Below are positions 46,709 through 64,000 of a DNA stretch of 64,000 bases, piece by piece (within the stretch, counting starts at the first letter, position 1; every line of letters begins with the position of its first letter). The translations under genes and the position numbers were made by a program. This DNA comes from Alphaproteobacteria bacterium (GTDB lineage: Bacteria; Pseudomonadota; Alphaproteobacteria; Oceanibaculales; Oceanibaculaceae): assembly GCA_018823745.1 (NCBI GenBank), contig JAHJHR010000011.1, positions 293,802 to 357,801 of the forward strand, written 5' to 3'. The notes beneath the pieces are model-generated. The model made no database searches and was not told the origin of the DNA. It saw nothing but the letters and a program-made list of their open reading frames with translations.

Positions 46709-46782
46709 TGGGGGATCGTCTAGCGGTAGGACTACGGACTCTGACTCCGTCAACCCTGGTTCGAATCCAGGTCCCCCAGCCA
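46709..46782 (+). tRNA. tRNA-Gln (anticodon CUG)
   Basis: Full cloverleaf by eye: acceptor TGGGGGA (46709-46715) with TCCCCCA (46772-46778), discriminator G79, encoded CCA (46780-46782). D arm tctagcggtagga; anticodon stem CGGA/TCCG around loop CTCTGAC with anticodon CTG; T arm CCTGG/CCAGG with TTCGAAT. The gene is intact. It lies 82 bases before an integrase gene reading the same way, so its 3' end is the likely attachment site of the island that follows. Confidence 0.97.
46760..46782 (+). other. Predicted left attachment site (attL) of the genomic island
   Basis: The T-arm and acceptor end of tRNA-Gln are the usual crossover core for tyrosine integrases encoded just downstream. No second copy occurs in the window, so the other end must lie beyond 64000. 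The exact core cannot be set without that copy. Confidence 0.55.
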
Positions 46783-46864
46783 TTTTCCTCTAATCATCTG
46801 AAAATGTTACGATTTTCAGTCCGATACGGGCCTTGATGCTGCTGTAGCACAAAGGTGTATCACA

Positions 46865-48772
46865 ATGAGGAAAATCCAGCATCTGCACCGGCGTGGCGCA
46901 GCCTATTGGTGGCGTCGCCGGATGCCCGCCGATCCGGCGCGGCGTTTTCCTGATTTCATTGTACAATTAAGCCTGCGCACCAAGGATCGTCGGCAAGCCG
47001 TCCCCAGGGCGCGCTGGCTGACTTATATTACGGATGCGATGCTGATGGGCGTGGGAACAACATACCTGAAACCGAACGAGCTTCAGGCTCTGCTGCGCGA
47101 TTATCTGACCGCACGGCTCGTCTGGCTGGAAAACGAACTGACCGCCGATCCCACCGCAGAGGCAGTCCATGTCGAGCAACTGATCAGGGACATGAAGGAT
47201 GGTGTGCGCGATGCCCATCGCGCCTACCTGGCCGCTAGGGAGAACGAGTGGTCGGCCGAACAGGCAACTGAACTTCTGGGGCTGAGCGGCTACAAGCCGC
47301 CATACAGTGCCTATGTCATGAAGCAGGTCCAGAAACTGATTCATCAGGGCGAACGGGAAGCCTTCAGGACCATGGTGGCACGGCTGGAGGGCGCGCCCGG
47401 GGCAGAACCGGAACTGTCTGAGACGATCCTGCCGACCCAGGCGTTGCTCGAGCAGGGTCTTGTGGATTTCGGCGCAAGGCCGGCAGGCCCGCGCCGCTCG
47501 AATCGAGAGGCTGAGCAGCCCCATATCTCTCCGATTTCACAGTCTGGAGCCGCACGCGCCGCTGGCGTGACGTCGGTGACAAGTCAGCGAAAACGTCCGG
47601 CGACCGCAAAGCGGCAGGCCGCTAGTGCCAGCCGGAGCGTGATGGATATCTTCGAGGAATACGAAACCGAGCGCTCACGCTTCGGAAACTGGAGCGAGAA
47701 GACACGAATCCAGACTCGGCAGAGCCTGTCGCTGATGGCGGATTTCCTGGGCGACCTCCCCCCGCTGGACTACAGCCGGGCCGTGATGGTCGGGTTCAAG
47801 GCGAAGCTTCTGAAATTGCCGGCGGGCTACGGACAGGCGAAGGCCTATAAGGGACTGCGCGGTGATGCCCTTATCCAGAAGGGTCAGCAGCTAGGCGACA
47901 TTCCGGTCAGCGGAAAGACTCTGAACAGGCACCTTTCCGCTCTCTCGGCATTCTGGGACTGGCTCGTATCACACGATTATGCGGCGGAGAATCCGTTGAA
48001 GGGTCTTGGCGGAAAGAAACCGCCGGCACGGCGCGCCCGACTGAAGGCGAGGCGGGCAATCAGTGAAGGTGAAATCCGCACCCTTCTCACCTCGCCCGTC
48101 TATGCAGGCTGCCGGTCGGCTGGCCGGCGCACGCAGCCCGGCAGCGTGATCATCAAGGACGAACTTTTCTGGCTGCCACTGTTTGAGTTGTTAAATGGTC
48201 TGCGATTGAGCGAGATCGCCCAGGCCAGGACAGAAGACCTCATTTTCCTCGCCGATCACAATCACTGGTTCCTGCGAATCGAGGAAGGCGAAGGCCGGTC
48301 CGTCAAGACCGAGACCTCGCGCCGGCCTGTACCAGTTCACCCGGAAATCCTGCGGCGCGGATTCATCGATTTCGTTGAAGAGAAGCGCAAAGCCAGCACG
48401 GATGGACGGCTTTTCCCGAGGGGCTGGGGAAACAATGCGGCCTCACCGTCCGCCCCGGTCGGCAAGCTGATCAGCCGATACTTCGATGCCATCGGCATCG
48501 GCGCTTCGGGGGCAAAAAATCATGCGCTGCGACATAGTTTTGCAACGAAGCTCAAGGCACATGGCATCGATCCCCGTGTCCGATCACTACTCATGGGGCA
48601 TGAAGCAGTGGATGACTGGAACTGGGCGAATCGTGGCTCCGCAATGACGAAAACTTATGAGGAAGACACAGAAGAAGCCGTCTCGGGTGATTTGCGGTTG
48701 ATGATCGAGGCGATCAGGATGGTGGACTTTGAGAAGTTACTCAGCCAACCGGAAAAAAGTTCAGCTGCCTGA
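46865..48772 (+). CDS. Tyrosine site-specific integrase of the tRNA-Gln island
   Basis: 635 aa. The N-terminus (IQHLHRRGAAYWWRRRMP ... LSLRTKDRRQA) is the DUF6538-type arm-binding domain common in alphaproteobacterial island integrases. A SAM-like core-binding domain spans roughly 255-385 and the catalytic domain about 395-620. Catalytic residues: Arg in LLNGLRLSEIAQ, H-x-x-R in HALRHSFATKL, His in LLMGHEA, and the nucleophile Tyr in TKTYEED. A variable Arg/Ser/Ala linker lies at about 205-255. Directly downstream of its presumed target. Confidence 0.93.
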   Translation: MRKIQHLHRRGAAYWWRRRMPADPARRFPDFIVQLSLRTKDRRQAVPRARWLTYITDAMLMGVGTTYLKPNELQALLRDYLTARLVWLENELTADPTAEAVHVEQLIRDMKDGVRDAHRAYLAARENEWSAEQATELLGLSGYKPPYSAYVMKQVQKLIHQGEREAFRTMVARLEGAPGAEPELSETILPTQALLEQGLVDFGARPAGPRRSNREAEQPHISPISQSGAARAAGVTSVTSQRKRPATAKRQAASASRSVMDIFEEYETERSRFGNWSEKTRIQTRQSLSLMADFLGDLPPLDYSRAVMVGFKAKLLKLPAGYGQAKAYKGLRGDALIQKGQQLGDIPVSGKTLNRHLSALSAFWDWLVSHDYAAENPLKGLGGKKPPARRARLKARRAISEGEIRTLLTSPVYAGCRSAGRRTQPGSVIIKDELFWLPLFELLNGLRLSEIAQARTEDLIFLADHNHWFLRIEEGEGRSVKTETSRRPVPVHPEILRRGFIDFVEEKRKASTDGRLFPRGWGNNAASPSAPVGKLISRYFDAIGIGASGAKNHALRHSFATKLKAHGIDPRVRSLLMGHEAVDDWNWANRGSAMTKTYEEDTEEAVSGDLRLMIEAIRMVDFEKLLSQPEKSSAA

Positions 48773-48923
48773 GCATGCGTAATTTTTGAGGCATGAAGAC
48801 CATGACACGCTCAGTTTCCTGGCTGGACCTCCTCTCGGGTAGGGACAAGGTCCGCCTTTTGATGTGCTGGAAATAACTATCGAGCGCAGTAGAGTTTCGT
48901 AGAGCGGTCGCAAATGAGAAAAG

Positions 48924-50528
48924 CTATCTCTCCGGCCCGTCGCGACCCAGACTATGTTCACGCTGCGGCCTTTGGTGAGCGACGAGTTCATCTTGAGTTG
49001 CATACTGCAACGTCGCCCCACGATCTGACTGTCTTCGCATTTGATCCGCTAGCTCAGGTAATCCTGAAGCCTGGTCCCGTCCGACAAACACCTCCGTCTG
49101 GCCCCGTGCACGGGTCATGGCCACGTAGCTGGCGGCATCCCGCCAATGGTGGGTATGTAAAAGGTATGTCTGATCAAGGGTCTTGCCTTGTCCGCGATAG
49201 ATCGTGCCCGCGTAGCCAAGGTCGATATTCGTGAATTCTCGGGTGTCAAAGGTGATCATACGCCCCCTATCGGACCGAACCGTAACCCGATCGCCATCGA
49301 TGACCTCTACAGTTGCCAACGATCCAGCGTAAATGCCCTTCTGTTTCCACGTCCCCCGAAACGCAACCCGGTCGCCAGCGCCTACAGAAAGCGTTCCGCG
49401 CTCGGTTTCCAGAGTGATGCAATCCCGCACCCGACCGCGCGCGATTTCGATGGCCTGCATAGCGTCGTTGAGTTGCCGAACTTCGTCGTTCGTGTAGGCG
49501 AAGACAAAGCGCGTCCCTCGACCCGCCTCAGTATCGGCCTCCCAGCGCTCTAGGAGCGCCACACGAGCCGCTTCAAGATCATCGCGCCAATGGATCAGGC
49601 CGTGGGCGTCATAAGCCTCCAACCCCTCGCTGAATTGCCCTTCGGAAAAACCCCGGGACGCCTGCCGCGCCCACTCCTGATGTTGACGGCGAACAGAGGT
49701 TAAGGCGGCGCTGCCAACCCGCTCCCGAACTACGGAGAAGATGCCGCCGCGCTCGATGGAGGCCAGTTGGCGGTCATCACCGACAAGAACGAGTTTGGCG
49801 CCAGTATCAACGGCGAGTTGGGTGAGCGCATCGAGTCTCTGCGTGTCGAGCATTGCAGCCTCATCCACAACGATCAGTGATTTGGAAGCGACCTTTGCAT
49901 TCGCATGCTCCGGTGCATGATCGCGATACCAGAGAAGAGAATGCACGGTTGTTGCTCGCCCGAAACCGCTGTCGCGCAAATCTTGGGCCACGGCGTTTGT
50001 TGGCGCCAGTCCAATGACTTCATACCCATCCTTCTCAGCCACCTGTCGAATCGCAGATAGGGTATGGCTCTTGCCGGTCCCAGCACGGCCCTCCAGAATC
50101 TTCAAACACCCTGCATCCAATACATGGCGCATAGCATCAGTCTGTTCTTCATCGAGCGTCATGTTACGGGCAACGACACGGATAAACCGGATGCCGATTT
50201 CATGTTTACGAGAGGATTCCAAAGCGTCTGCACGCGCCACGATGGCTTTCTCCTGCGCGCGGATGGAACAAAGGGTCCAACCCACTTCCTCCTGCGTCAC
50301 AGAGTCATAGAGCCGAAGGGTATCGTCATGCGAAGCGATCGCTTCGACCAACGAGGCGGGAGTCGCAACGCCCTTGCTCAGAAAAGCCCGGTGAATTTCG
50401 CCTTCGGTCACGAACGACTGGGTGAGCAACAGGTCAGAAAACACCTCAATCGGGTCCAGCTCTGCGACCTTTTCAAGGATCAAATCCTGTGACGGATTGG
50501 CCTCTGCTCGAATAAGCTTCGCCTTCAT
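48924..50528 (-). pseudogene. TraA-type conjugative relaxase, helicase part only (N-terminus missing)
   Basis: About 534 aa resembling the C-terminal two thirds of Ti-type TraA relaxase-helicases. RecD-like motifs: Walker A GRAGTGKSHTLSAIR, VVDEAAMLD, VGDDRQLASIE, YRGQGKTLDQ and YVAMTRARG. The nicking MobA/MobL domain that should come first is absent. Homology stops at AKLIRA (near 50522), where an oppositely oriented coupling-protein fragment begins, so the gene was truncated by a rearrangement. The ORF start at 50609 uses antisense sequence of that neighbour. A helicase-like product could still be made from ATG 50528. Confidence 0.75.
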
Positions 50529-51726
50529 CGGCGGGCAGGGAAGCGGGAAGACCACAGCCCTGAAATTCATGCTGCGCCAGTTGATCGGCCGAAAGAAAAC
50601 GAAGATCATCCTGTTGGATCAAAAAGGCGACCTCACTGCGACATGGCCGGCGTCAGACGTTATCCTTTTCGCTCCCCATGACCGCCGCTCGCGCGCATGG
50701 GACATTGGAGCCGATGTGGCCGGCGAGATTGCAGCACAGGAATTTGCCGCAACGCTTATCCCAGCAGAAGGGGCGGAAACGGTCTGGCCACAAGGGGCTC
50801 GCCAGATCATTGAGGCCGTTGTAATCGCACTACAGCGCCAGCACGGCACGAACTGGGGATTTGCAGAGCTGCTGAATGCACTCCAGTCTCGCCCGGACCG
50901 TCTGCGGTCAATCGTTGCAAAGGTGCGCCCCGATGTACTTGCCTTTCTGAGTGTCGACGAAAAGGGGCAGTTTACACGCACTGCAATCGGCTACATCACC
51001 AACCTGCAAGCCGCCGCGATCCCGCTCCTGCGCCCGCTGGCACTCTCTTGGGGTACCGTCCCGAAATCGGCGCGCGTCTCACTGCGGTCTTGGCTCCATG
51101 GCAAGGGTCCAGCCGCCCAAACACTGATTCTGCAGAACAACACCGACTTTCCAACCATCAGCGCGGCCTGGATGCGGCAGGTTATCCAACGCCTCGTTCG
51201 GATCAGTGGCAGCTCGTCTTTCCCTGATGACCCGAACCGACGCATCTGGTTCATCCTAGACGAATTTCCGCAACTCGGTCACATGCCAGACCTTCTGCGC
51301 GTGCCGGAAACCCATAGATCGAAAGGGGCAACGCTGGTTCTGACCGCACAATCAATCAGCCAAGTCTACTCAATCTACGGGCGCGAGGATGGCGATACAC
51401 TCATCAATCTAATGCAGACCAAGATCATTCTGAAGCCCGGCCAGGGAAGCGATCTCGTCTCTCGCCTCAATGAATGGCTCGGGACGTTCCGCTGGCGCGA
51501 TCCCATGGAAAACGGTGTGACAGAAACCGGCCTTCGGGTGCCAATCAAAGAGCACGAGAGTAATCTACTCGAGCCTGTCTACCTGAACACTCTCGGTTCA
51601 AAGCCGGATGGTGTAAGCGGCTTGCTTCTAGGATTGGGGCCTGACGTCTTTCGAATTGAGTGGCCATATCAAGATTGGCCGGCTCAGAGGCCCGGCGTTT
51701 GCCTCGCTCCTTGGGCGAAAACATAG
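50524..51726 (+). pseudogene. Type IV coupling protein (TraD/TrwB-like), N-terminus missing
   Basis: About 400 aa of the ATPase of a conjugative coupling protein. Homology begins abruptly at its Walker A motif (FIGGQGSGKTTALKF) and includes ILLDQKGD, NTDFPTISAAW, Walker B IWFILDEFPQLGHM and VLTAQSISQVYSIYG. The N-terminal membrane helices that anchor such proteins are absent. The frame is open upstream to 50422, but those residues are antisense to the relaxase remnant. Together with that remnant it marks a decayed conjugative element. Confidence 0.75.
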
Positions 51727-52200: not shown

Positions 52201-53601
52201 TTATATTCGACGCCATCCCACCATGTGAGGGTGGACAATCTCATTACAAAATTGCCCGAAGCTCACAACGTTGGCGCGCCCTTCATATTCAGCTTCCTTC
52301 GACTTCGTCAGGCTTTCGGGGATGACGAGGTGCACGCCAAAGGAGGCCATGTCGTCGATGGCATTGCCTGCGATGTTCTCATCGACAGTTGTGAGGAACA
52401 GTCGGCGCGAGCCTTTCTCGCGCTCGACCTGTTTCCAGCGTTCGCGCAAGGTTGTCTTGGCGCTGAGAATCAGGCCCGTAGCGGCCGTCTCCTTGCCGCT
52501 GTCGATGAAGGCGAGTGATGGGAGAATGAAGTCGGGGCGTTTCTTTGCCTCGATGATGACCTGCTTTTCGAACGGGATGCCCCCGCCTGCGAGCATCGCC
52601 TCGATATGGTGTTCATAGGAGTAGCCCGCGCGCGATTTTCGCTGCTGGCTGGCTGAGAGCAAAAGCGCATCAATAGTCTGGTACTCATCGATCAGGCGGC
52701 GGATGACTTCCGATGCCGTGATGGTGCGCGCGGAGTTGCCGAGCACGATGCGCACGAGTTCGACCGAGCGTTCGCGCCTCTGGAATTCCCGGAAGAGGTC
52801 CCATTCGATCGAGCGGCTGATCTCACGCAGCGCGTCGCCGGGGGCTTCAAGGGTGAAGGGGTTGATGGATTCAAGGCCGCGCTTCTTGAGGAAGGCCGAC
52901 TGCGCCATGCGGGCAAGCTCGGCCGTCACTGGCATGGTGGCATTACAGGACGCGAATTGCCCAATCGTGCCGGCGAGCCAGGCCGCTATGACCTGCTCTG
53001 CGAAATCCAGCACCTTGTCGCGCTCGAGAGCCTTTCGCTCGGCGGGTTCAAAGATGCCGATTAGGAAGTCTGCGCCGAGATCGAAAAGCTCGGCGAGCAG
53101 TCCGGCATCGTCGCTGACCGAGTCGATGGTCATGCACTCAAAGGTGTGCTCGCCATTTCGGGTGACGCGGCCCATCACGAGGTAAGAGGCTGGCGAGAGA
53201 TCGATAAACGCTTCGCGCGGGATGCCGGTTACGTGCGTTTCCTGACTCTTGCTTCGGTAGTTCACAAGCCGTGACTTGCGTGTCTCCGAGACCTGAGGCC
53301 AGATCGTCTCAAAGAACCTCTCCCATATCTCGTCGGTCTTACCGTCGGTACGATCCTTCAGCTCAAGGGGCAGGAAGAAGCCGCCGTCGCGCGGCTCATG
53401 CGGAATGTAGACGCCCGCCTGATTGTTCATGCGCTTTCCCGGTACGGGCCGACCTTCACTGTCCTCCTTTTGCCGTGCCCAAAGGCGATCGTTGTTCGAG
53501 AGTTTCTTGATCAGGACCTGATCGGCCTTGACGAAAAGACGCGTAAGGAGATCGGCGTCAGCGCCTGATTGTTCGAAGGCGAATTCTGGCTGGCCGCTCA
53601 T
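52201..53601 (-). CDS. Type II restriction endonuclease, EcoRII-like
   Basis: 466 aa from the ATG at 53601. The C-terminal part matches the EcoRII catalytic domain: RAGYSYEHHIEAMLAGGG, KKRPDFILPS with the catalytic Asp, and LSAKTTLRERWKQV with the catalytic Lys. The N-terminal ~250 residues correspond to the effector-DNA binding region. EcoRII-type enzymes cut before CCWGG; the Dcm-like partner and vsr support that specificity, though it is inferred. It overlaps vsr by 4 bases. The ORF start at 53646 is rejected. Confidence 0.9.
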   Translation of the reverse strand: MSGQPEFAFEQSGADADLLTRLFVKADQVLIKKLSNNDRLWARQKEDSEGRPVPGKRMNNQAGVYIPHEPRDGGFFLPLELKDRTDGKTDEIWERFFETIWPQVSETRKSRLVNYRSKSQETHVTGIPREAFIDLSPASYLVMGRVTRNGEHTFECMTIDSVSDDAGLLAELFDLGADFLIGIFEPAERKALERDKVLDFAEQVIAAWLAGTIGQFASCNATMPVTAELARMAQSAFLKKRGLESINPFTLEAPGDALREISRSIEWDLFREFQRRERSVELVRIVLGNSARTITASEVIRRLIDEYQTIDALLLSASQQRKSRAGYSYEHHIEAMLAGGGIPFEKQVIIEAKKRPDFILPSLAFIDSGKETAATGLILSAKTTLRERWKQVEREKGSRRLFLTTVDENIAGNAIDDMASFGVHLVIPESLTKSKEAEYEGRANVVSFGQFCNEIVHPHMVGWRRI

Positions 53602-54053
53602 CGCGCGCCTTCGATTTCCAGGAAGGGTTCGGCGCTGCAAAGCCACTGTGCGATCCGGCCAATGACGTCATCGAGGGCCAAGCGTGTCCTGCCCTTAAGT
53701 GCGCACTCCCAGACGACAAGGAAGCGCCAGCTTTGCCTTGTGAGCTGTTCGCGCACGATCGCGTCGCGCTCGACATTGCGCGCTATCTTTTGTGACCAGA
53801 ACTCCGTGCGCGTCGATGGTATCTTGAAGAGGTGGCAATCGTGATGATGCCAGAAGCACCCGTTCACAAAGATCGCCGCGCGAAAGCGCGGGAGCACAAG
53901 ATCAGGTTTGCCGGGGACGTTGCCCACGTGCAGGCGAAAGCGAAATCCTCTAGCATGCAGCCCGCGCCGGATTGCCAGCTCAGGCTTCGTGTCCTTGCCC
54001 CTGATACCGGCCATCATCCGGCTGCGGGTCTGCTGGTCGACGACATCAGGCAA
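53598..54053 (-). CDS. vsr: Very short patch repair endonuclease, probable TTG start
   Basis: Nicks next to T:G mismatches produced when 5-methylcytosine deaminates at the methylase site; 151 aa from the TTG at 54053. That start gives [21 protein letters not shown], the family N-terminus; the ATG at 54101 lacks a ribosome site and adds 16 unmatched residues inside dcm. Catalytic residues: D51 (GKPDLVL), H69 region in [13 protein letters not shown], zinc-type Cys/His in the same stretch. Overlaps the methylase gene end by 8 bases and the endonuclease start by 4. Confidence 0.92.
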
Positions 54054-55293
54054 CCGCTTTGGCCTTTCTACGTACGGCAGGGCTTTCCTGCATCTCTTCA
54101 TTTATGAAAGGGGCCATGTGTTTAGCAACCGCCTCGACGACGGGCACGACCACCGCGTTGCCAAACTGGCGATAGGCCTGCGTATCCGAGACCGGGATTC
54201 TAAATTCCTGCTGCCCGGGTTTTTCAAAGCCCATGAGGCGCGCGCATTCGCGCGGAGTGAGGCGGCGCGGGTTCTTTTGCTTCTGGTTGATCAGAATCTC
54301 CGAGCCATCCTTGTGGTAACGGGCCGAGAGTGTGCGGGCAACATCCTTTGGTCCGAAGAGGCCGAAGCCGAAGCCGTTGCCTGCGAGGCGGTGCTTTTCG
54401 GCGTAGGCCTGAAGGTAGCCCCAGAGATGATCGGAAAGCGTGTAGCGATCCAGTACCTTGCCCGTCGTGCCGCCGATGAAGCGCTCATCAGGCTCTTCAC
54501 TACCGTCTTCAGGATGCAGGATGCTCGCAAGTGTGGGGGCGCCGAGCGCGTCCGGCAGAGCGAGAGTGCTCAGGTCAAAGTCGTTATCCTCGCGGAAGCC
54601 GACGATGAAGATGCGCTCGCGATGCTGGGGAACGAAGGCGCTCGCGTCGATAACGCGCGTCTGGACGTTGTAGCCCAGATCCTCTTTCAGCGTCGTCATG
54701 ATGATATCGAAGGTCCGGCCCTTGTCATGGCTCCTGAGATTCTTGACGTTCTCCAGAAGGAAGGCTTTGGGCCGGTGATGGCGGATGATGCGCGCCACAT
54801 CGAAGAACAGTGTTCCCTGCACATCGCACTGGAAGCCGTGAGGCCGTCCCAGTGAATTCTTCTTCGAGACGCCCGCGAGAGAGAAGGGTTGGCAAGGAAA
54901 GCCTGCGAGCAGCACGTCGTGCGCCGGTATAGCTTCCTCGGGAATTTTCGTGATGTCACCGGCGAGCTCGTGACCCATCGGGTAGTTCGCCCGGTAGGTT
55001 TCCTGGCTGAAGCGGTCCCACTCTGATGTGAAGACGCACTTGCCGCCGACGCTTTCGAAGCCCCGGCGCATGCCGCCGATACCGGCGAAGAGGTCGATAA
55101 AGATGAAGGGTGCACTCTGGCTACTGGAGACGCGCTCGGATGCCAGAAACTGCATGAGTTCAATGACGGGTTTGCGCGGGGCGGTCTCGCCGCGCTCCCA
55201 GCGGTAGACCGTCCGTTCATTAAAGCCCACGCGCTGCGCGGTTTCTTGCACTGTCAGCCCTGCCTTTTGTCTGAGCTGTGAGAATGTTTGCAT
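54046..55293 (-). CDS. dcm: DNA (cytosine-5) methyltransferase with N-terminal HTH, Dcm/M.EcoRII-M.SsoII type
   Basis: 415 aa. Residues 1-52 form an XRE-like HTH ([30 protein letters not shown]); then m5C motifs [31 protein letters not shown] with C134, [25 protein letters not shown] and [12 protein letters not shown]. The target domain text ([26 protein letters not shown] in parts) is of the CCWGG-methylating kind. In M.SsoII/M.EcoRII relatives the HTH represses the enzyme's own gene; a 15-bp palindrome 34 bases upstream of this start suggests the same. GGAG precedes the ATG at 55293. Confidence 0.95.
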
Positions 55294-55326
55294 GGATGGC
55301 TCCAAGATGAATCTCCGGGAATATTT

Positions 55327-55341
55327 ATGACATAATGTCAT
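55327..55341. promoter_or_regulatory. 15-bp palindromic operator upstream of the HTH-methyltransferase gene
   Basis: ATGACAT-A-ATGTCAT, a perfect inverted repeat. It keeps the GACA-N3-TGTC core that I recall for the regulatory site bound by M.SsoII/M.Ecl18kI. It lies in the leader of the methyltransferase gene, where binding would repress it. Confidence 0.7.
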
Positions 55342-55541
55342 GGGAACTTTTAAAGAACAACACAAAAGAACACAGAAGAATCACCAATAGAATCAATGCT
55401 CTATTCGTGCCGGCGGCGACGTTTCGGGCTCCCGCCAGAAAAGGCGGCTTTGCGAGGGTGCGTTGAGGGCGACAAGCCCCTTGTAAAGCCTCACAGTGGC
55501 GTACGTTATCCGATACATTTTTCATACATTTTGAAAATGTG

Positions 55542-55571
55542 TTGACATAATCGGCATAAAACCCGCATATA
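55542..55571 (+). promoter_or_regulatory. Candidate promoter of the GHKL operon
   Basis: Perfect TTGACA at 55542-55547 and an AT-rich -10 region (catatatt, about 55566-55573) with 17-19 bases between. It lies just before the small first gene. Confidence 0.5.
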
Positions 55572-55592
55572 TTAACAATGGAGAAGAAACAT

Positions 55593-55814
55593 ATGCGCAA
55601 CAAACGCCAGAAATTTGTAGAGCTTGCAGAGGCCCGTGTGAACAAGGCCATCAAGGACATGCAGCTGGTCGGGAACCTTTCGAACCGCAGTGCCTACGAG
55701 TTCACCGAAGGCGACGTGAAGAAGGTCTTCAGCGCATTGCAGAAGGCACTGGATTCCGCAAAGGGCAGGTTTAACAAGGATGGCGACAGTGGTGGGGGAG
55801 ATTTTCGTTTATGA
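55593..55814 (+). CDS. Small conserved-looking protein, first gene of the GHKL operon
   Basis: 73 aa from the ATG at 55593, which is preferred because GGAG sits at 55580-55583. Sequence: basic helical N-terminus (KFVELAEARVNKAIKDMQ), then GNLSNRSAYEFTEGDVKKVF and a charged helix. I recall similar short proteins beside ATP-binding genes in restriction or defence loci, but cannot name a family. The stop overlaps the GHKL gene start (ATGA), so it is a coupled component, perhaps a regulator or adaptor. Confidence 0.75.
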   Translation: MRNKRQKFVELAEARVNKAIKDMQLVGNLSNRSAYEFTEGDVKKVFSALQKALDSAKGRFNKDGDSGGGDFRL

Positions 55815-57721
55815 GTAATAGTGATTCGATTGGACTTGAGTTTTTGCTAAATGATGGTGGTGATGCTGAAGGGCTCGGTGACGCCGGCATCGAGACATTC
55901 CGTGACAAGCCATTTGCAGCAGTAGCGCGCGAGGCGAGCCAGAATAGTCGTGATGCGCGGCTCGACGACCAAGCGCCGGTTCTGATGACGTTTGATCAGA
56001 TCAGCGTGCCCTCGGATGAGTTTCCTTCCATCAAGAGCTTCAGAGATGCTGTTGCACGCTGCCTAGTCGAGGCCGAAAAGCTTGGCAATGAGAAGGATAT
56101 TGGCTTCTTCCGGCAGGCCTCAAAAGTTCTTGACGCGCCAGAAATTCGCATCATGCGGGTTGCGGACTTCAACACCAAAGGTGTTCCGGGCCCCTGCGTT
56201 AAGGGCCAACCGTTTCATACGCTCGCGAAGGCCGATGGCGTCAGCATCAAGCCTGACATCAACTCGGGTGGGTCATTTGGCATTGGAAAGAGCGCCGCCT
56301 CCGCCCTCTCGGACATCCAGACGGCGTTCTACTCGACGCTTTATTCCGACGATGAAGGAAGCCATGTTCTGTGCATGGGAAAGGCCCTGCTGATCTCACA
56401 TACGGGGGCTGACGGTCAGGAGCGCCGCCGCAAGGGTTATTGGGGCAAGAAGCAGGGTTTTCAGCCTCTCGACAATCCGAAGGACATTCCTGGGTGGCTG
56501 CTTCGAGAGAAGCAGGGAACGTCGATCTTCTCCGTCTGCGTACGGGAAAACCGCATCGACTGGCGCTACGAAATGGCCGCGGCGCTGCTCATCAATTTCT
56601 TCGCCGCGATCCAGCGGCAGGAAATGGAGTTCCAAATTGATAGTGGCGCAATCAAGATCAACAGAAATACGATTGAAGCACTATTCAATGACCTTGCCGT
56701 GAACGAAGCAGTCGACCAACTCAAGGCGCGGGATGCTTTCGATGTAGCGAGCCGGCTGTATGCGTGTCTCGTGGATCAGCAGGCGATTCTCAAAACCATC
56801 GAAGTTACCGGGCTTGGCGCCGTCAATCTGCGCATGGTCCTGCGCGAGAAGCTTGGTTACACGATCGGCATTATCCGCAATGGCATGTACATCACCGGCA
56901 ACTTCAAGAACTTCGGTGAGCCTTTCAAGCGCTTCCCGCTGCATCGCGATTTTGCTCTCGTCATTGAACCGGCGGGCACAAGTGAAGGCGAGTGGTTCAA
57001 GCGGCTTGAAAACCCGAGCCATGATGATCTCTCCGCCGAGCGGATTACTGATCCTGTCCTTCGCGAGCAGGGGCAGAGGCTCTTTGAAAAGCTTGCCGAC
57101 CGAATTCGCCGGTATATCCGTGAGATGGCAAAGTCCGAGCCGGGTGCATCGATGGAGCTTGAGGAGCTAAATGACTATTTTGCGTCAGAGGAGACGCAGA
57201 CCGAGGATGACCTTGGCACCGAGACCAATCCCAAGTCCCTTCGCCCGACGCCGTTAAACGTCGCGCCGCGAAAGCCGAAGCGGAGAGTGACAACGCCGCA
57301 CGGCGAGGACGATGACGTGCCCGTAATTGAGCCCCTTACAGATATCGAGCCTGATCCGAATCCTGATCTGGTCCGGCCGCCCGGGCCGCTGATCCGTAAA
57401 CGCAGGTCCTCAGAGCCCATCGACCTGCAAAATGAACGCAACCTCCTGCCCGAGCCCGCGAACCTCAAGCTGCGCAGGCTGATTTTTACATCGCCGGTCG
57501 AAGGCGACGTCAGCGTGAGCGTAGAAGCCTCAGGCTTGAGCGTACCTGATCGACTGGTTATCAGCAGTTCACAAACCGGTGTGCTCAATGCCGGCGACCT
57601 AGTCGTGGCATGCGGGAAGGGTGAGCGCATTTCCGTTGATGTCGAGTTTGACATCCCTTACGGCGGGCCCATTGATCTCAGCGCCGTATACCTGCATGAA
57701 GAGGAGGTCGAATCAGCATGA
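55811..57721 (+). CDS. GHKL-family ATPase of an uncharacterised four-gene operon
   Basis: 636 aa. N-box E41-x3-N45 (VAREASQNSRDAR), a degenerate G1-type motif around D119 (VADFNTKGVPG) and a G2-type GGSFGIGKSAAS at 153-162 indicate a Bergerat ATP site like MutL/MORC proteins. Residues about 460-550 are low-complexity, acidic and Pro-rich (a linker); the last ~90 residues look like a beta-sandwich. No PD-(D/E)xK core was seen, unlike the GHKL protein at 37190. Coupled to both neighbours by overlaps. Function unknown; the setting beside an EcoRII-type system suggests defence. Confidence 0.8.
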   Translation: MSNSDSIGLEFLLNDGGDAEGLGDAGIETFRDKPFAAVAREASQNSRDARLDDQAPVLMTFDQISVPSDEFPSIKSFRDAVARCLVEAEKLGNEKDIGFFRQASKVLDAPEIRIMRVADFNTKGVPGPCVKGQPFHTLAKADGVSIKPDINSGGSFGIGKSAASALSDIQTAFYSTLYSDDEGSHVLCMGKALLISHTGADGQERRRKGYWGKKQGFQPLDNPKDIPGWLLREKQGTSIFSVCVRENRIDWRYEMAAALLINFFAAIQRQEMEFQIDSGAIKINRNTIEALFNDLAVNEAVDQLKARDAFDVASRLYACLVDQQAILKTIEVTGLGAVNLRMVLREKLGYTIGIIRNGMYITGNFKNFGEPFKRFPLHRDFALVIEPAGTSEGEWFKRLENPSHDDLSAERITDPVLREQGQRLFEKLADRIRRYIREMAKSEPGASMELEELNDYFASEETQTEDDLGTETNPKSLRPTPLNVAPRKPKRRVTTPHGEDDDVPVIEPLTDIEPDPNPDLVRPPGPLIRKRRSSEPIDLQNERNLLPEPANLKLRRLIFTSPVEGDVSVSVEASGLSVPDRLVISSSQTGVLNAGDLVVACGKGERISVDVEFDIPYGGPIDLSAVYLHEEEVESA

Positions 57722-58548
57722 AGCTCGATGATTACATGCGCTATCCGCACCCGGTTCTCAGCGAGCTTTCAGGTGATTACACGACCGGAGAGTTTGTCTG
57801 TGGCTTTGAACAAAATCTGACGCCTGAAGGTGAACTGCGCCTCGTTGCTGATCTGCGTATCGACAGCGATGAGCTTGTGGACCTGATCCAGACCCAGGCA
57901 GCAGCGCCAGGCTATTTCGTCGTTTGCAGGCGAACCTACTTCAATCATTTGCAGGCAGCCTCACTGGGCCGCAGCGAGAAGTTTTTTGATGCAAGCAAGC
58001 TGTTCGGTGCGGTCACCATCCGGCCTGTCGTCTACACTCTGAGTAAGGTTGAAGGATACACAAGCCCTCTGATCAACGTTGAGTTCGGAGCCGCATCCAC
58101 AATCGGCAAGGGGGCGATCATCGCGCTGGGGCCGGAGTTCCGGTTCTCAATGGATCAGAAGAAGTACAAGCCCTTCGACAGCATCTTTGAGCTCGCGAGA
58201 AATGAGGAAGTACCCCTCAACACCTTCCGGGTGGACCATGATCAGGACAGGATTACCATTCTTGCCCGCGAGGAGACGTACAACTCCATCTCCTCTATCC
58301 GCGATATGAACCAGGGCAAGGACGTGGTTATGAACACCGTCTATCTGCCCGCTGTGGTCGAGGTAATATCGAGGCTGCAAACCGGGGGCATGAGCGTCGA
58401 GGGTCGGAAGTGGTATCGGATATTCAAGGCGAAGTGCGACGATCTGGGCGCGAACCCTGTTGATCCCGATGTGTCGCCCCTTGATCTTGCCCAGCAATTG
58501 CTGCGTAGACCGTTCGTAAAGACGATCGCGCTCATGGAGAGCTTCTGA
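57718..58548 (+). CDS. Unrecognised protein, third gene of the GHKL operon
   Basis: 276 aa, soluble, without signal peptide or membrane helix. It opens MKLDDYMRYPHPVLSELSGD. The composition is mixed alpha/beta; SMDQKKYKPFDSIFELARNEEV and the C-terminal LLRRPFVKTIALMESF are notable. No catalytic motif was identified. It overlaps the GHKL gene by 4 bases (ATGA) and the next gene by one base (TGATG), so its product is probably made in step with both. Confidence 0.75.
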   Translation: MKLDDYMRYPHPVLSELSGDYTTGEFVCGFEQNLTPEGELRLVADLRIDSDELVDLIQTQAAAPGYFVVCRRTYFNHLQAASLGRSEKFFDASKLFGAVTIRPVVYTLSKVEGYTSPLINVEFGAASTIGKGAIIALGPEFRFSMDQKKYKPFDSIFELARNEEVPLNTFRVDHDQDRITILAREETYNSISSIRDMNQGKDVVMNTVYLPAVVEVISRLQTGGMSVEGRKWYRIFKAKCDDLGANPVDPDVSPLDLAQQLLRRPFVKTIALMESF

Positions 58549-59291
58549 TGACACAGCCATTGCTCTATCTGTCGGACCGTGTGCTGGGTGAGCTTCGAAA
58601 GAACGTGGGTGTCAACCTCGATCGCTATCGCACCACCGGCTTTGCCGACCTCGCGGAGGAGCCCGGATGGGATATTCCGCTTGGCATAGAGTTCGATGGC
58701 ACAAGGCTCGCCACGCTCGACCAGTCAACGCCACAGAACATCGTCAGTGTCGATCTTCCCAACTCGATTATCGTCGGTGAGGCGATTTCGGGCCTTTCGC
58801 CCGCCATGGCGAACGAGGAGAGAGTCTGGACTAGGCTCTCGCATGTCGAGGCAATAGACTATTGTCGCGCGCGCTGGATTACAGGGCGTGAAGAGGCAAG
58901 GCACGAGAACCTGATCATCGATCACTTCTTTGCACCCACGCAGACTGGCATTCGTGACGATCATGCCCTTTCGCGTCTGTGGTGGAATTATCAGATAGCC
59001 AGAACCTGCATGCCGGAGGACGTTTCCGGCGCCTTAGCCATCATCATGAAGACGGCCGACATCAGGAGCAACTTCGTCGAGCGCATATGGATGACCAGCC
59101 GCAAGAATATTGCGGGTGCGGTTCTGCGTGCCATGAAATCGGATCTGTGGATTACTGCGAACGAAGCCAATTTTAGGATGTTCATGAAATCCTTGAACCG
59201 GCTGGGTGGTGGCGTGGTGTTCGAGGTTCTGGACACTGGCGAGACCGACGAGTTTGTCAGGCATTGCGCTGCTTATGCCAAAGCCGCGTAG
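58548..59291 (+). CDS. Possible DUF6339-like protein, last gene of the GHKL operon
   Basis: 247 aa starting LLYLSDRVLGELRKNVGVN, a helical soluble protein with LSRLWWNYQIARTCMP and a C-terminal half rich in helices (NFVERIWMTSRKNIAGAVLRA in parts). The beginning resembles what I remember as DUF6339, unverified. No nuclease or ATPase motif seen. One-base overlap with the preceding gene. Its role within the operon is unknown. Confidence 0.7.
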   Translation: MTQPLLYLSDRVLGELRKNVGVNLDRYRTTGFADLAEEPGWDIPLGIEFDGTRLATLDQSTPQNIVSVDLPNSIIVGEAISGLSPAMANEERVWTRLSHVEAIDYCRARWITGREEARHENLIIDHFFAPTQTGIRDDHALSRLWWNYQIARTCMPEDVSGALAIIMKTADIRSNFVERIWMTSRKNIAGAVLRAMKSDLWITANEANFRMFMKSLNRLGGGVVFEVLDTGETDEFVRHCAAYAKAA

Positions 59292-59506: not shown

Positions 59507-61108
59507 TCAATAAATGCCCGGAGTGAGGGCTCTAGGCTGACCTTGGTTGGCTCTCACCACAACGTCTGGTTTGAGGCAAGGCAAACTCTGTTTAAATTGT
59601 CGATATGAGGCCGCATTGCCGTCAGCACCGGGCCGGAAGCTGTCTGTCCGGTTCTGGCGATCCGCGAGCGGTAAGCCGCCGTTCTGACTCCGTCTTCGTT
59701 TCAGTCGTTCCCACCTAAGTTCAAAATCCCAGGAGTTGCCTTCCCTTTGCCGCGCCATCCGCTGCGCGACGCGACCCGATCCGCATGATCCGAGCGCCAT
59801 CCCCTCATCTGGCGACCAGACAACCACATCACGCGGCCGCCCTCGGAAGGGCTCACCCAGAAGGGCCAAGCCGTCGCGGAAAAGCGCATACTGGTAAGGC
59901 TCATCTACGTCGGCCCGAGCAATGCTATCTTCCGCGGAAAGTGAAAAGCCTGTTGGTTCGAAGGTTGGAAGCCTCATCGTTGCCGGCAGCCCCGCCGCTC
60001 GGCTGCGGATCGTATTGCTCAGCACGTTCAAGAATTCGCTTCCAGCTTTCTCCTCGATCGCGAACCAGCCGAAGTCAAAGCCAGGGTGGCGCGATGGCGA
60101 CAAACGTGCGCGCCCTGCAAGTCGCCACCACTCTGGATGATCGAAGGAATCGTCGATCCACCATGGAGGGCCGCCCGGCCGCAAAAGCCACGGAGGCACC
60201 GCCAAATAAGTTCTCCCTGCATAGCCGAATCGAAGAAACGGGACGTCATGTCGCTCAGGAGCTCGGGAGTCTGGCAAGCGGATCCAGTCGATCCAATTCG
60301 TTACCCCCGGCGCACCCATCAACAGAAAGTTCGAGCGGTGGGTCGCGAGCGCCATCGGCGCAGGCGTGCTTTCTGGAACTGCGCCTCTCTGCATGGTGCC
60401 TGGCGGCGGAGCTCGCTTTCGTGGCTTCGAGATCCGCGTCTCCGATACGGCCAAGAAGCTTCCGGCTACCGTTGGCTTCGCGCCGAATGCAATCGAATAG
60501 CCGTGGACCTCTCCGAATGGCGATGGTTTCGCGACGAAGGGCTTTACCTGCTTGACGTACTTTCTCTTCGCCGCGTTCGCTATCTTGGCAGCGCTCGCAT
60601 CTTTAGCGAGCGAACCGTGCGCCTCTGCGAGCACGACACCGTGGCCGGACGCGTTGCCACCTTCGTAGATGAAATCTGCATGGGGATCGAGCGACGACGA
60701 GAGGCACGCCGCGTTGGCCCGCCATGCGTAGCCGAGAGCGTCCATGTACAGGTGGGCAATCCCGGCACCGACTTTGGCCGCAAACTGCGATCCAGCAGTA
60801 TCCGCGAGGAATTTGAAATGAGATTCGAGCGCAAAGGCCGATCCATCCTGGAGCAAAGTTTCCAGTTCGATCAGAGCGCTTTTCTGCAATCCGTCGAGTA
60901 GGACGACGGGCGCATCATCCCAAGTTGTCGACGTCCTCGCGATGGCGGCGGCCAAGGCAATCGAATTGAAAGACAGGACCGGCTGCGCCGGCGGCGCCAC
61001 GAAATGCGGCGAGACCGGGCTTGGCACGTGGCCGTGCTTCGTATGCTTGGTCAAACCAATCAGCTTGGTCGACGTCCCCAGTCCGGCAGTCGTTACGCGC
61101 CCGCTCAT
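59507..61108 (-). CDS. Unknown protein coupled to a Gabija-like pair, degenerate nuclease-like signature
   Basis: 533 aa. The central text DFIYEGG (D145) ... GVVLAEAHGSLAKDAS (E162-A-H164) followed by AAKRKYVKQVKPF resembles a PD-(D/E)xK core in which the Lys is replaced by His. A Trp-rich block (PPWLLRPGGPPWWIDDSFDHPEWWRLAG) occurs near 310-340. The start overlaps the UvrD gene stop by 4 bases (ATGA), so the two are coupled. The last ~80 residues are Arg-rich and less protein-like. No family recognised; a third component of an OLD-UvrD defence system is the best guess. Confidence 0.7.
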   Translation of the reverse strand: MSGRVTTAGLGTSTKLIGLTKHTKHGHVPSPVSPHFVAPPAQPVLSFNSIALAAAIARTSTTWDDAPVVLLDGLQKSALIELETLLQDGSAFALESHFKFLADTAGSQFAAKVGAGIAHLYMDALGYAWRANAACLSSSLDPHADFIYEGGNASGHGVVLAEAHGSLAKDASAAKIANAAKRKYVKQVKPFVAKPSPFGEVHGYSIAFGAKPTVAGSFLAVSETRISKPRKRAPPPGTMQRGAVPESTPAPMALATHRSNFLLMGAPGVTNWIDWIRLPDSRAPERHDVPFLRFGYAGRTYLAVPPWLLRPGGPPWWIDDSFDHPEWWRLAGRARLSPSRHPGFDFGWFAIEEKAGSEFLNVLSNTIRSRAAGLPATMRLPTFEPTGFSLSAEDSIARADVDEPYQYALFRDGLALLGEPFRGRPRDVVVWSPDEGMALGSCGSGRVAQRMARQREGNSWDFELRWERLKRRRSQNGGLPLADRQNRTDSFRPGADGNAASYRQFKQSLPCLKPDVVVRANQGQPRALTPGIY

Positions 61109-63084
61109 TCCTTCGGCTCCGCGGCCTGCGCGACCAGGTCCACAAGTTTCCAGCCTTGGTCCGTGGCGGGGCCTATCAGGATCATCGCTTCGGATTTGCG
61201 CAACGCGAGCCCCAACAGCTCGCGCGGCCTGGTCACGCCGACGAAGACGTTAGTCGCGGCGGTGAGCCTTACCCCCGTAAAGAGCTCGTCGGTAACGCCG
61301 AACGCGCGTGGAAGCACCGCAGCCAGATCGATGCACTGCTCGTCCGCGCTATTGCCTTTCCAAATCTCGCTCTCAAGGACGAGAATGCCATCAACGCTCT
61401 TACCCTTGACCGAGTGGATCGACCCCAGCCGCAACGTGAGATCGTCGAATTGAACCTGCTTCGTGGAGCGGCGCTCGGGGTCGGCAAGATCGGCCTTCTG
61501 TTCGGCGACAAAGCTGCAAAAGTCCGCGATCTCGCCCTCGGAGCCCTGAGGAGCCGGACTGAACAGTGGTAGCAACGCTTCCATAAATGCCAACCATGCC
61601 GCCTCTTCCCACACTGCAGCGCCGGCAAGCACATGGTCCCGCAACAATCGACGTACAGTGCGTGGCAACCCGAGGTCGCGATGCGCCAGCGCCGCCCAGA
61701 CATTGTGCGCGGTGATCGGACGATCATTCGCCGCTTTCCAACCATGGGCCTGCGCCAGTCCCGACACCCCCGCGGCGAGCATCTCACTGACCTCTGCGGG
61801 CGGTCGCGCCGCGGCATAGTGCACGGCAGCCTTCTGAAGCTGCGGGCAAAAGAGATTCGCTTTTGATCGAGACCCGCCCTCACTGCGATATGCGGGATGA
61901 TAATCGACGAGACTTTTAGGCCGCCATGCCCCTTTCTTGCCGGCCAGATTGTGGCGCGACGCGACCGCCCAAACGTCGCGCGTGCTGCAATCGCCACCCC
62001 ACAGCGCGCGTGCTTCTTCGGCGAAGGCTCCGAGAACCATACCGATCGAAGCTTCATCGAACAGGAACATCACCCGCGACGCCGGCCGTGGGCCCAGCCC
62101 GACAATGGTCTGAGCCTGGCGCGCGGTTAGCCGGCTTGCAAAACTAGCGATCTCCCCGCCGAACCGGCGGCTAGTATCGAGAGGGATGCAGTCGGCGCCC
62201 GGCGTCCAATATGTCGGTGCAGCTCCATCGTCCTCGTATAGAGTCTGATTGCTGTCCCCAAGACGCTGGAACGCCGCCCCACCTTGCTTAAACACGTGTT
62301 CCAGCAGCCGGAGCTGGTCGCCATGCGTGTCCTGCGCCTCATCAAGAATGACGAGCGGAAACCGATCGCGAAGCCGTTCGGCCAGGCCCGGGTTTTCGCG
62401 GAGCGCACGCCACGCGAGCGCAGTCATGTCGGCATAGCGATATATCCCGCTCCTGACCATCGCGGCCTTGAGCTTTGATAGCGCCTTGCCGCAATCTGTA
62501 TCAGCACCGTGCTGACCCTTTCGCCGCTGCACTATCAGGCTTTCGGGTTCTTGCCATACGTCATCGAAGGCTGGATCGAGCGTGAGATTACCAACCCATT
62601 TGGCGACAGTTGCGCTGGCCCTCTCGGCTTGCTTTCTCAGTGCCCAGAACGACGGATAGCGCCGCAACGCCTCGGCCGCAAAAGCATCGTCGTCAATCTG
62701 GCGCACGTGCCAGCCCAAGCCTCGAAGATAGGGCAAGGCGAGATACTGGTTGATGAATGCCGTGACCGTGCCGGTGAAATGAGGATAGGCCATCAGCCGC
62801 GCCGCAGTCGGATGGCTGGCGATCAAATCTTCGACCTCGGTCCGCGCCGCGTTGGTGTGCGAGATGACGCATACGCCGCGCCTGCGGGTCGTCCAATTGC
62901 GCGACAGCAGCGCGAGCTTCGCCGCCAACAGTGTCGTCTTGCCGTTGCCGGGCGCGGCCTGCACGTCACAGGGAGCGGCCTTGGCCAAGAAGTCGATCTG
63001 GCTAGGATCGGTGAAATCGCAGCCGCCCAGCTCGTCACCAAGTTCAGCAAGCAGTTCAGGCGTGAGCGGCAGGATCTCGAACAT
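61105..63084 (-). CDS. UvrD/Rep-family helicase, GajB-like
   Basis: 659 aa, SF1A helicase. Walker A is AAPGNGKTTLLAAKL (43-50 core), motif Ia VCVISHTNAARTEVED, Walker B LVILDEAQDTHGDQL, motif III RLGDSNQTLY, motif IV LDTSRRFGG, motif V IHSVKGKSVDGILVLE and motif VI NVFVGVTRPRELL. The ATG at 63084 begins MFEILPLTPELL; the ORF start at 63186 overlaps the upstream gene and is rejected. It starts 4 bases after an OLD/TOPRIM nuclease gene, the order of Gabija GajA-GajB, although the protein is longer than classical GajB. Confidence 0.88.
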   Translation of the reverse strand: MFEILPLTPELLAELGDELGGCDFTDPSQIDFLAKAAPCDVQAAPGNGKTTLLAAKLALLSRNWTTRRRGVCVISHTNAARTEVEDLIASHPTAARLMAYPHFTGTVTAFINQYLALPYLRGLGWHVRQIDDDAFAAEALRRYPSFWALRKQAERASATVAKWVGNLTLDPAFDDVWQEPESLIVQRRKGQHGADTDCGKALSKLKAAMVRSGIYRYADMTALAWRALRENPGLAERLRDRFPLVILDEAQDTHGDQLRLLEHVFKQGGAAFQRLGDSNQTLYEDDGAAPTYWTPGADCIPLDTSRRFGGEIASFASRLTARQAQTIVGLGPRPASRVMFLFDEASIGMVLGAFAEEARALWGGDCSTRDVWAVASRHNLAGKKGAWRPKSLVDYHPAYRSEGGSRSKANLFCPQLQKAAVHYAAARPPAEVSEMLAAGVSGLAQAHGWKAANDRPITAHNVWAALAHRDLGLPRTVRRLLRDHVLAGAAVWEEAAWLAFMEALLPLFSPAPQGSEGEIADFCSFVAEQKADLADPERRSTKQVQFDDLTLRLGSIHSVKGKSVDGILVLESEIWKGNSADEQCIDLAAVLPRAFGVTDELFTGVRLTAATNVFVGVTRPRELLGLALRKSEAMILIGPATDQGWKLVDLVAQAAEPKE

Positions 63085-63088
63085 TGCG

Positions 63089-64000
63089 CTAAGCCCCCGC
63101 CGCCGCGGCGCCGTCCATTCCAGCGACGCCAGCCTCTTCGTCTTCCGGATCGGCAGCGATCGCCGGTGCCCCGGGGACATAGCCACCGGTCACGTAGTCG
63201 ATCGCGCGCACCAGATAGGGCGGGAGTCGATCACGCATCTGCTCCGGCGTATCGCTGCGCTTGCGCAGTATTGCGGCGAGTTGCTCGGCGACTTCGGCTT
63301 TGGAGGCCTCCTTGTCATGGACGGGCTGGTAGATCTTGACGGCAATCTCGGTCGCAGAGAGTCTCGCCTCTTTCCAATCCGCGTAGGTCTCGCTGGCCTT
63401 CTCCACAATCTTCGCAAGCCGCTCGGGCTTACGACTGCTGGTCTTTGCGAGTTGGACTGCCTGGTGAACGCTCTCGGCAAGCTCGGGCCGGAGCGCGAGA
63501 TCGAACTCAAGAGTCCAGCTATCAGCGATGAAAGCGTCGACAGGGTCTCCGGCGTCGCGCCGCAGCGTCTTCAGCCGCGCTGCGATGTCGTCCTGGGTCA
63601 ACTCGTTCTCGGTCTTGCGGTCGCCGACAAGGTCTTTCGCTTCGGGCGGCGGGATGTCCCTGTCGGGGATCAGCGCCACGGGCACCGGGATAGCGTTCCC
63701 GGCCTTACGCTGCAGAATCCGGCTGTAACGAAACAGACCACGGTGGCCGACATTGACGATCGACACGCCGTGACGGCTGAGCGGACGGTTGAGCTTCTCG
63801 GCGATTGCCGGCAGCAACAGATGCTCACCGTCGCCCTCGACGACAATCAGCGCGCGGGCGAAGAACAGGTTGGCCTTCGTCGCGTCGAGGAACCGACGAA
63901 GGAACTCATAATCGTCCACTTCGAGCCGGGTATGGGTCGCGCCCAGCGGAAAGGCGCGGTGGCCGACGATCATTGTCATGGTCTCAAGCTCGGCGCCGGC
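63089..64000 (-). CDS. OLD-family ATP-dependent nuclease, TOPRIM part (GajA-like), 5' end beyond window
   Basis: The frame is open to the right edge; 303 C-terminal residues are visible. They contain the TOPRIM motifs: IVVEGDGEHLLLPAIAEKLN with the catalytic Glu, VNVGHRGLFRYSRIL, and the metal-binding LIPDRDIPP (DxD). The preceding FLRRFLDATKANLFFARA is the usual link from the ABC-type ATPase half, which lies outside. The tail is Ala/Asp/Glu-rich low complexity. Followed after 4 bases by the UvrD-type gene; the pair resembles Gabija or class 2 OLD systems. Confidence 0.88.
   Translation of the reverse strand, partial: AGAELETMTMIVGHRAFPLGATHTRLEVDDYEFLRRFLDATKANLFFARALIVVEGDGEHLLLPAIAEKLNRPLSRHGVSIVNVGHRGLFRYSRILQRKAGNAIPVPVALIPDRDIPPPEAKDLVGDRKTENELTQDDIAARLKTLRRDAGDPVDAFIADSWTLEFDLALRPELAESVHQAVQLAKTSSRKPERLAKIVEKASETYADWKEARLSATEIAVKIYQPVHDKEASKAEVAEQLAAILRKRSDTPEQMRDRLPPYLVRAIDYVTGGYVPGAPAIAADPEDEEAGVAGMDGAAAAGA

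What the first reader, a model, noticed from the sequence alone, without database searches (positions are those of the whole stretch)
55542..59291. Four-gene operon around a second GHKL ATPase: candidate undescribed defence system
A 73-aa protein, a GHKL ATPase (E41-x3-N45, GGSFGIGK), a 276-aa and a 247-aa unknown protein are coupled by ATGA, ATGA and TGATG overlaps, so they form one machine. It is divergent from an EcoRII-type system inside a defence island. No nuclease was recognised in any of the four, so the effector is hidden. It differs from the GHKL-nuclease cassette at 37 kb.
Basis: inference. Interest (0 to 1): 0.78.

Follow-up and report, generated by a model that had tools for sequence, protein, structure and literature searches.

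The report
Methylase-linked GHKL ATPase gene module
The four genes are one conserved, mobile module built around a MutL/MORC-like ATPase; it is already listed as an untested phage-defence candidate (PDC-M33) and usually travels with a DNA cytosine methylase, so it most likely acts as the ATP-driven arm of a methylation-based restriction system rather than as a new independent machine.

Summary
A 73-aa gene (S), a GHKL-type ATPase (A, 636 aa), B (276 aa) and C (247 aa) overlap by ATGA, ATGA and TGATG and form one operon. It is not undescribed: A, B and C match PADLOC's candidate PDC-M33 (1.5e-88, 1e-38, 3.6e-26), and C is DUF6339. I found no published test of it. A carries the ExxxH motif that Iyer et al. 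2008 give as the paraMORC2 mark, in 98 of 98 aligned sequences, so it fits that restriction-linked ATPase family.

Across 89 loci A-B-C stay adjacent (86) and change together (distance correlation 0.84-0.88). A C5-cytosine methylase lies within 6 kb in 68, sometimes as a methylase-A-B-C operon, but is swapped freely (correlation 0.32). Restriction enzymes vary or are not recognised; about 20 loci lack a nearby methylase. B is modelled as beta-rich with helices, C as all-helical without a PDB match; neither shows a nuclease motif.

Most likely A-B-C is an ATP-driven DNA-clamp arm that uses cytosine methylation to spare self DNA, with EcoRII and Vsr as local nucleases here.

The parts
55593..55814 (+). 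S: 73-aa small protein, first gene; found upstream of A in about 40% of loci, optional
   Evidence: ORF and start comparison with relatives
55811..57721 (+). A: 636-aa GHKL-type ATPase, paraMORC2-like, PADLOC PDC-M33A
   Evidence: PADLOC 1.5e-88; ATP-binding motifs and ExxxH conserved in relatives
55931..55945 (+). GHKL motif I, E41-x3-N45
   Evidence: 98% conserved in 98 sequences
56267..56290 (+). GHKL motif III, GGSFGIGK (residues 153-160)
   Evidence: three glycines 100% conserved
57008..57022 (+). ExxxH (E400-H404), the motif Iyer et al. 2008 give as the mark of paraMORC2
   Evidence: 98 of 98 sequences; definition read in PMC2292703
57718..58548 (+). B: 276 aa, PDC-M33B, modelled as beta-rich body plus helical tail, no known enzyme motif
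   Evidence: PADLOC 1e-38; AlphaFold pLDDT 94.7, pTM 0.72; only generic Ig-like matches
58548..59291 (+). C: 247 aa, PDC-M33C, DUF6339, modelled as mostly helical with no PDB or viral structure match
   Evidence: Pfam 5.4e-40, PADLOC 3.6e-26, pLDDT 96.2, fold searches
54046..55293 (-). C5 cytosine methylase (Dcm/M.EcoRII-like) with N-terminal HTH; likely partner that marks self DNA (ORF 54046-55365; the ATG at 55293 is the probable start)
   Evidence: PF00145 5.9e-82 and HTH_31
53598..54101 (-). Vsr mismatch endonuclease
   Evidence: PF03852 4.5e-30, TIGR00632
52201..53601 (-). EcoRII-like restriction endonuclease (ORF 52201-53646; the ATG at 53601 is a probable start)
   Evidence: PF09019 5.2e-26

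Best explanation
A-B-C is the ATP-driven DNA-handling arm of a cytosine-methylation-based restriction system. The partner C5 methylase marks self DNA. A, a paraMORC2-type GHKL protein, dimerises on ATP and, with B and C as its dedicated DNA- or partner-binding subunits, closes as a clamp on unmarked DNA. The damage is done either by a nuclease encoded nearby (here EcoRII and Vsr) or, where no nuclease is encoded, by blocking or compacting the DNA or calling in host nucleases. Shown: the conserved A-B-C unit, its motifs, its preference for C5 methylases, the free exchange of the methylase, and loci without a recognised restriction enzyme. Inferred: clamp action, sensing of m5C, anti-phage effect, and how the harm is done.
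For: A-B-C adjacent and co-directional in 86 of 89 loci and co-evolving (Spearman 0.84-0.88). C5 methylase within 6 kb in 66 of 86 non-redundant loci and in 40 of 58 clusters at 60% identity, while only 47 of 115 class genomes have any C5 methylase at all. Present in 3 of 3 loci fetched independently through the B model (one of them resembles L062). Methylase gene overlapping or within 60 bp upstream of A in 14 loci. Methylase exchanged while A-B-C is kept (L062/L066: A 91%, methylase 27%). Loci with methylase and A-B-C but no recognised restriction enzyme in the flanking genes scanned: L027, L103, L121 and, with Vsr, L022, L111, L114, L053. EcoRII gene coupled or close to A or C in L089, L069, L074, L064, L068. 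Sister systems with a related A and a C-like protein (hhalign 3.4e-6) sit with HNH, Z1 helicase and C5 methylase genes. GHKL proteins do this kind of work elsewhere: MutL with ATP stimulates Vsr in vitro (PMC6116569); MORC2 compacts DNA and needs ATP binding for it (PMC12216690).
Against: About 20 of 86 loci have no C5 methylase within 6 kb, and some (L100, L102, L116) sit beside metabolic genes; 9 of 10 such genomes carry one elsewhere, but such methylases are common. No direct evidence of DNA binding, m5C sensing or phage protection. 'No restriction enzyme' means none recognised by Pfam in the flanking genes scanned. B and C are unlike any protein of known mechanism. The main locus set was chosen by similarity to the window's A, which favours resemblance to this neighbourhood.
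Confidence: 0.45

Rival explanations
1. A-B-C is only a helper of the local nuclease: like MutL for MutH or Vsr, A uses ATP to load or stimulate EcoRII or Vsr, and does nothing without it.
For: EcoRII-like gene in 17 and Vsr in 34 of 86 loci; EcoRII gene coupled or close to A or C in several loci; other restriction enzymes elsewhere (AlwI, MvaI/BcnI, NgoFVII, Mrr, GmrSD). MutL stimulates Vsr with ATP.
Against: Some methylase-A-B-C loci show neither a recognised restriction enzyme nor Vsr (L027, L103, L121). The nucleases next to it are of unrelated families, which is hard for a specific helper.
Confidence: 0.22
2. A-B-C is a self-contained defence (for example abortive infection, or a guard that fires when restriction is inhibited) that merely travels with restriction systems.
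For: Loci without a recognised methylase or nuclease next to them (L100, L102, L116); methylase exchanged freely; Gabija nearby in the window. PADLOC lists the three genes as a candidate of their own.
Against: The association is with C5 methylases in particular and is operonic in a number of loci, which simple island sharing does not give. No toxic domain recognised.
Confidence: 0.16
3. A-B-C is not defence but a MutL-like accessory that helps repair T:G mismatches arising from deaminated 5-methylcytosine.
For: Would explain the preference for C5 over N6/N4 methylases; Vsr in about half of the methylase loci, and HhH-GPD-family base-excision proteins beside some others.
Against: Also found with N6/N4 or sulfur-type modification genes (L039, L040, L106, L028), where no m5C is expected from the neighbour; Vsr accompanies a good share of C5 methylases in the class anyway, so the excess is modest. 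Patchy, mobile distribution.
Confidence: 0.12

Closest known systems
PADLOC PDC-M33 (phage defence candidate, multi-gene 33; models A, B, C)
   Same: All three large proteins match their models in the right order.
   Different: No S or methylase model matched; the present work ties it to C5 methylases and to the paraMORC2 family. No functional test of PDC-M33 found in the paper library.
paraMORC2 GHKL ATPases of restriction-modification operons (Iyer, Abhiman and Aravind 2008, PMC2292703)
   Same: N-terminal GHKL motifs, ExxxH in all relatives, company of cytosine methylases and Vsr.
   Different: The original account stresses superfamily II helicases and RE-fold nucleases in such operons; these were not seen in most A-B-C loci. 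I read no mention of B or C in the parts of that text I saw.
Dcm/Vsr/EcoRII type II restriction-modification
   Same: The divergent partner genes in the window are of this type.
   Different: Classical EcoRII (own knowledge) has no GHKL, B or C genes.
VcSduA, GHKL-Shedu (PMC12137116)
   Same: GHKL ATPase in anti-phage defence.
   Different: VcSduA carries its own PD-(D/E)xK nuclease domain (DUF4263); none was detected in A.

Membership tests
PADLOC PDC-M33 | A, B and C proteins together, in order | tested here: met
   1.5e-88, 1e-38, 3.6e-26 to PDC-M33A/B/C
PADLOC PDC-M33 | protects against phage | not testable with these tools
   no paper found; needs a bench test
paraMORC2 | GHKL ATP-binding motifs | tested here: met
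   E41, N45, D119, G124, G154, G157, G159 conserved in 98-100% of 98 sequences; canonical DNGxGL in the divergent members L028, L029, L032. Motif evidence only: Pfam HATPase models did not reach E 1
paraMORC2 | ExxxH in the C-terminal part of the S5 domain | tested here: met
   E400/H404 in 98 of 98; definition in PMC2292703
paraMORC2 | S5-fold domain after the GHKL domain | not tested
   A was not folded; the two prediction jobs went to B and C
paraMORC2 | close sequence relation to the original paraMORC2 proteins | not tested
   original sequences not compared directly
paraMORC2 | linked to restriction-modification genes | tested here: met
   C5 methylase within 6 kb in 66 of 86 loci
GHKL-Shedu (VcSduA) | C-terminal PD-(D/E)xK nuclease (DUF4263) | tested here: not met
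   no such Pfam match in A
Type II restriction-modification (EcoRII/Dcm type), the partner genes | C5 methylase plus EcoRII-fold endonuclease | tested here: met
   PF00145 5.9e-82, PF09019 5.2e-26, Vsr 4.5e-30

The most novel reading that the evidence does not exclude
C5 methylase plus A-B-C is a complete restriction-modification-like system without its own nuclease: a paraMORC-type ATPase clamp with two new protein families silences or blocks DNA that lacks the methyl mark, a bacterial counterpart of MORC silencing guided by cytosine methylation.
Probability: 0.25. Interest if true: 0.85.

Novelty: new member of a known kind. Interest (0 to 1): 0.5.

Why it matters
PDC-M33 is, as far as the papers held here show, a name without a mechanism. 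The link to exchangeable C5 methylases and to the paraMORC2 ATPases turns it into a testable idea: bacteria may pair cytosine methylation with a MORC-like ATPase to police foreign DNA. The minimal loci (methylase-A-B-C with no recognised nuclease) are compact test objects, and C appears to be a fold not yet in the PDB.

Tried and rejected
Nuclease in B or C: no Pfam, NCBIfam or PHROGs match to a nuclease; PDB profile searches gave only chance-level hits; fold searches found nothing for C and only generic Ig-like domains, TM below 0.3 by query length, for B. No acidic or metal-binding cluster stands out as invariant in either, though R109, R143 and H99 of C are 86-94% conserved, so hidden catalysis is not excluded. 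B' of the Z1-type systems is not detectably B, nor are the two proteins after A in L030 detectably B and C. The A profile finds no solved structure and no hhalign link to a HATPase_c_3 protein, so the GHKL label rests on motifs. No phage record or viral contig gave B. No convincing shared regulatory palindrome between the methylase and S. A collection search with the wider A alignment failed for lack of conserved stretches.

Full report
Observation. The four ORFs are in the sequence as described, with overlaps of 4, 4 and 1 nt. The S start at 55593 is supported by relatives, several of which begin MRDKRxKF or similar, and by GGAG just upstream. The ATPase motifs are present and almost invariant.

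Known names. In PADLOC-DB the three large proteins match PDC-M33A, PDC-M33B and PDC-M33C. PDC names are phage-defence candidates; a later paper attributes them to the guilt-by-embedding preprint of Payne et al. 2024 and says that most await testing (PMC12988326). No paper in the library names PDC-M33 or DUF6339. C is Pfam DUF6339. For A, the ExxxH motif that Iyer et al. 2008 give for paraMORC2 is at E400-H404 in all 98 sequences aligned. I take A to be paraMORC2-like; the S5 fold was not tested and the original members were not compared directly.

Relatives. A search of 385 genomes of the class found A-type proteins in 18, and B in 7 of 398 genomes of the phylum, three of those weak. One pattern scan of the species-level genome collection kept 80 loci, from Proteobacteria, Bacillota, Cyanobacteria, Verrucomicrobia and others. 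Of four genomes of the window's genus only this one has B, so it is an accessory set. Plasmids of Lactococcus, Ligilactobacillus, Priestia and Planococcus carry it near AlwI, N6-methylase and MutH/Sau3AI-type genes.

The unit. In 89 loci with A and B, B follows A directly in 86, and C follows B in 86 of the 87 with C. Pairwise distances of A, B and C correlate at 0.84 to 0.88, far above permutations (maximum 0.21). S was found in 34 of 86 non-redundant loci and also before divergent GHKL proteins that have no recognisable B or C (L030, L033).

The methylase. A cluster of 84 proteins, 79 of which show both a PC[Q/P/G] and an EN[V/S/P] motif as expected of C5 methylases (PF00145 itself was run on the window's, L031's and L033's), lies within 6 kb in 66 of 86 loci and within 1.5 kb in 52. 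Only 47 of 115 sampled class genomes have any PF00145 protein, so by my estimate random placement would give well under 1%. Counting clusters at 60% identity of A, 40 of 58 have it. Three loci fetched through the B model all had it, though one of them is close to L062. In 14 loci the methylase gene lies less than 60 bp upstream of A or overlaps it. Yet methylase distances correlate only at 0.32 with A: the partner is exchanged, the kind of mark is mostly kept. Vsr is within 6 kb in 34 of 86 loci.

Nucleases. EcoRII-like enzymes occur in 17 of 86 loci, and the gene is coupled to A (L089, -4 nt) or close to A or C in others. Elsewhere MvaI/BcnI, AlwI, NgoFVII, Mrr and GmrSD types appear. Several loci show the methylase and A-B-C, with Vsr or without it, beside unrelated chromosomal genes such as dnaK/dnaJ and a glucosaminidase (L027), a pyrimidine-phosphorylase-type gene (L103) or a sugar transferase (L053). 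The scans covered the nearest flanking genes, not every ORF, so absence is provisional. Among loci without a nearby C5 methylase some have other modification genes (L039, L040, L106, L028), and some showed none in the adjacent gene scanned (L100, L102, L116). Nine of ten genomes checked from the loci without a nearby C5 methylase hold one elsewhere, which is suggestive only.

Structures. B is predicted with pLDDT 94.7 as a beta-rich body with a helical tail and resembles only generic Ig-like domains. C is predicted with pLDDT 96.2 as a mostly helical protein, without a match in the PDB or among viral models. Related systems in L035-L037 pair a related A with a C-like protein, an HNH protein (L035) and a Z1 helicase (Pfam on L036, clustering for L035 and L037). 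That places A-B-C in a wider group of GHKL systems found with different nucleases.

Mechanism. From MutL, which stimulates Vsr with ATP (PMC6116569), and MORC2, which compacts DNA and needs ATP binding to do so (PMC12216690), I infer that A closes as a clamp on DNA. B and C, which almost never leave A, would supply recognition or partner contact. The C5 methylase is the natural self mark. In this window the EcoRII-like enzyme and Vsr are the obvious cutters. Each step beyond the gene arrangement is inference.

Verdict. What is added here is the paraMORC2 assignment, the exchangeable-methylase pattern, the minimal loci and the apparently new fold of C. I did not find these in the papers read, but the founding preprint of the PDC names was not available here.

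Noticed in passing
window 59507-63979 and beyond (L123:13309-18843): A Gabija system (GajA 650 aa, reaching past the window end; GajB 693 aa) with a 533-aa protein without Pfam, PADLOC or NCBIfam match whose start overlaps GajB by 4 nt: a possible third Gabija-linked gene.
   Followed up: partly
window 46709-50609: tRNA-Gln followed by a 635-aa ORF whose start looks integrase-like (not verified), then a helicase-like ORF: perhaps the end of a mobile island that carries the defence genes. A search with the tRNA region found no second identical copy in the genome.
   Followed up: partly
L035, L036, L037: Sister systems: related GHKL, an unrelated-looking protein in the B position, a C-like protein (hhalign 3.4e-6), with HNH_2, Z1 helicase and C5 methylase genes nearby.
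   Followed up: partly
L030:9006-11197, L033:9378-11443: The small S protein precedes divergent GHKL proteins that lack recognisable B and C, so S belongs to the wider GHKL group.
   Followed up: partly
L028, L029, L032: Divergent A-B-C sets beside a protein with an SGGxxSG motif and, in some, a class-V aminotransferase and a GmrSD_N protein: perhaps linked to DNA sulfur modification instead of methylation.
   Followed up: partly
L096, L099, L104, L107: A family of about 230 aa that looks like an HhH-GPD base-excision protein lies near the methylases in loci without Vsr.
   Followed up: no
L075:7242-9512: A CHAT-domain (caspase-like) protein directly upstream of S-A-B-C in a Rhizobium locus without an adjacent methylase.
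   Followed up: no
window 37190-40245: A second, unrelated GHKL-type protein next to another C5 methylase (PF00145 hit at contig position 333012-334016, window about 39211-40215).
   Followed up: partly
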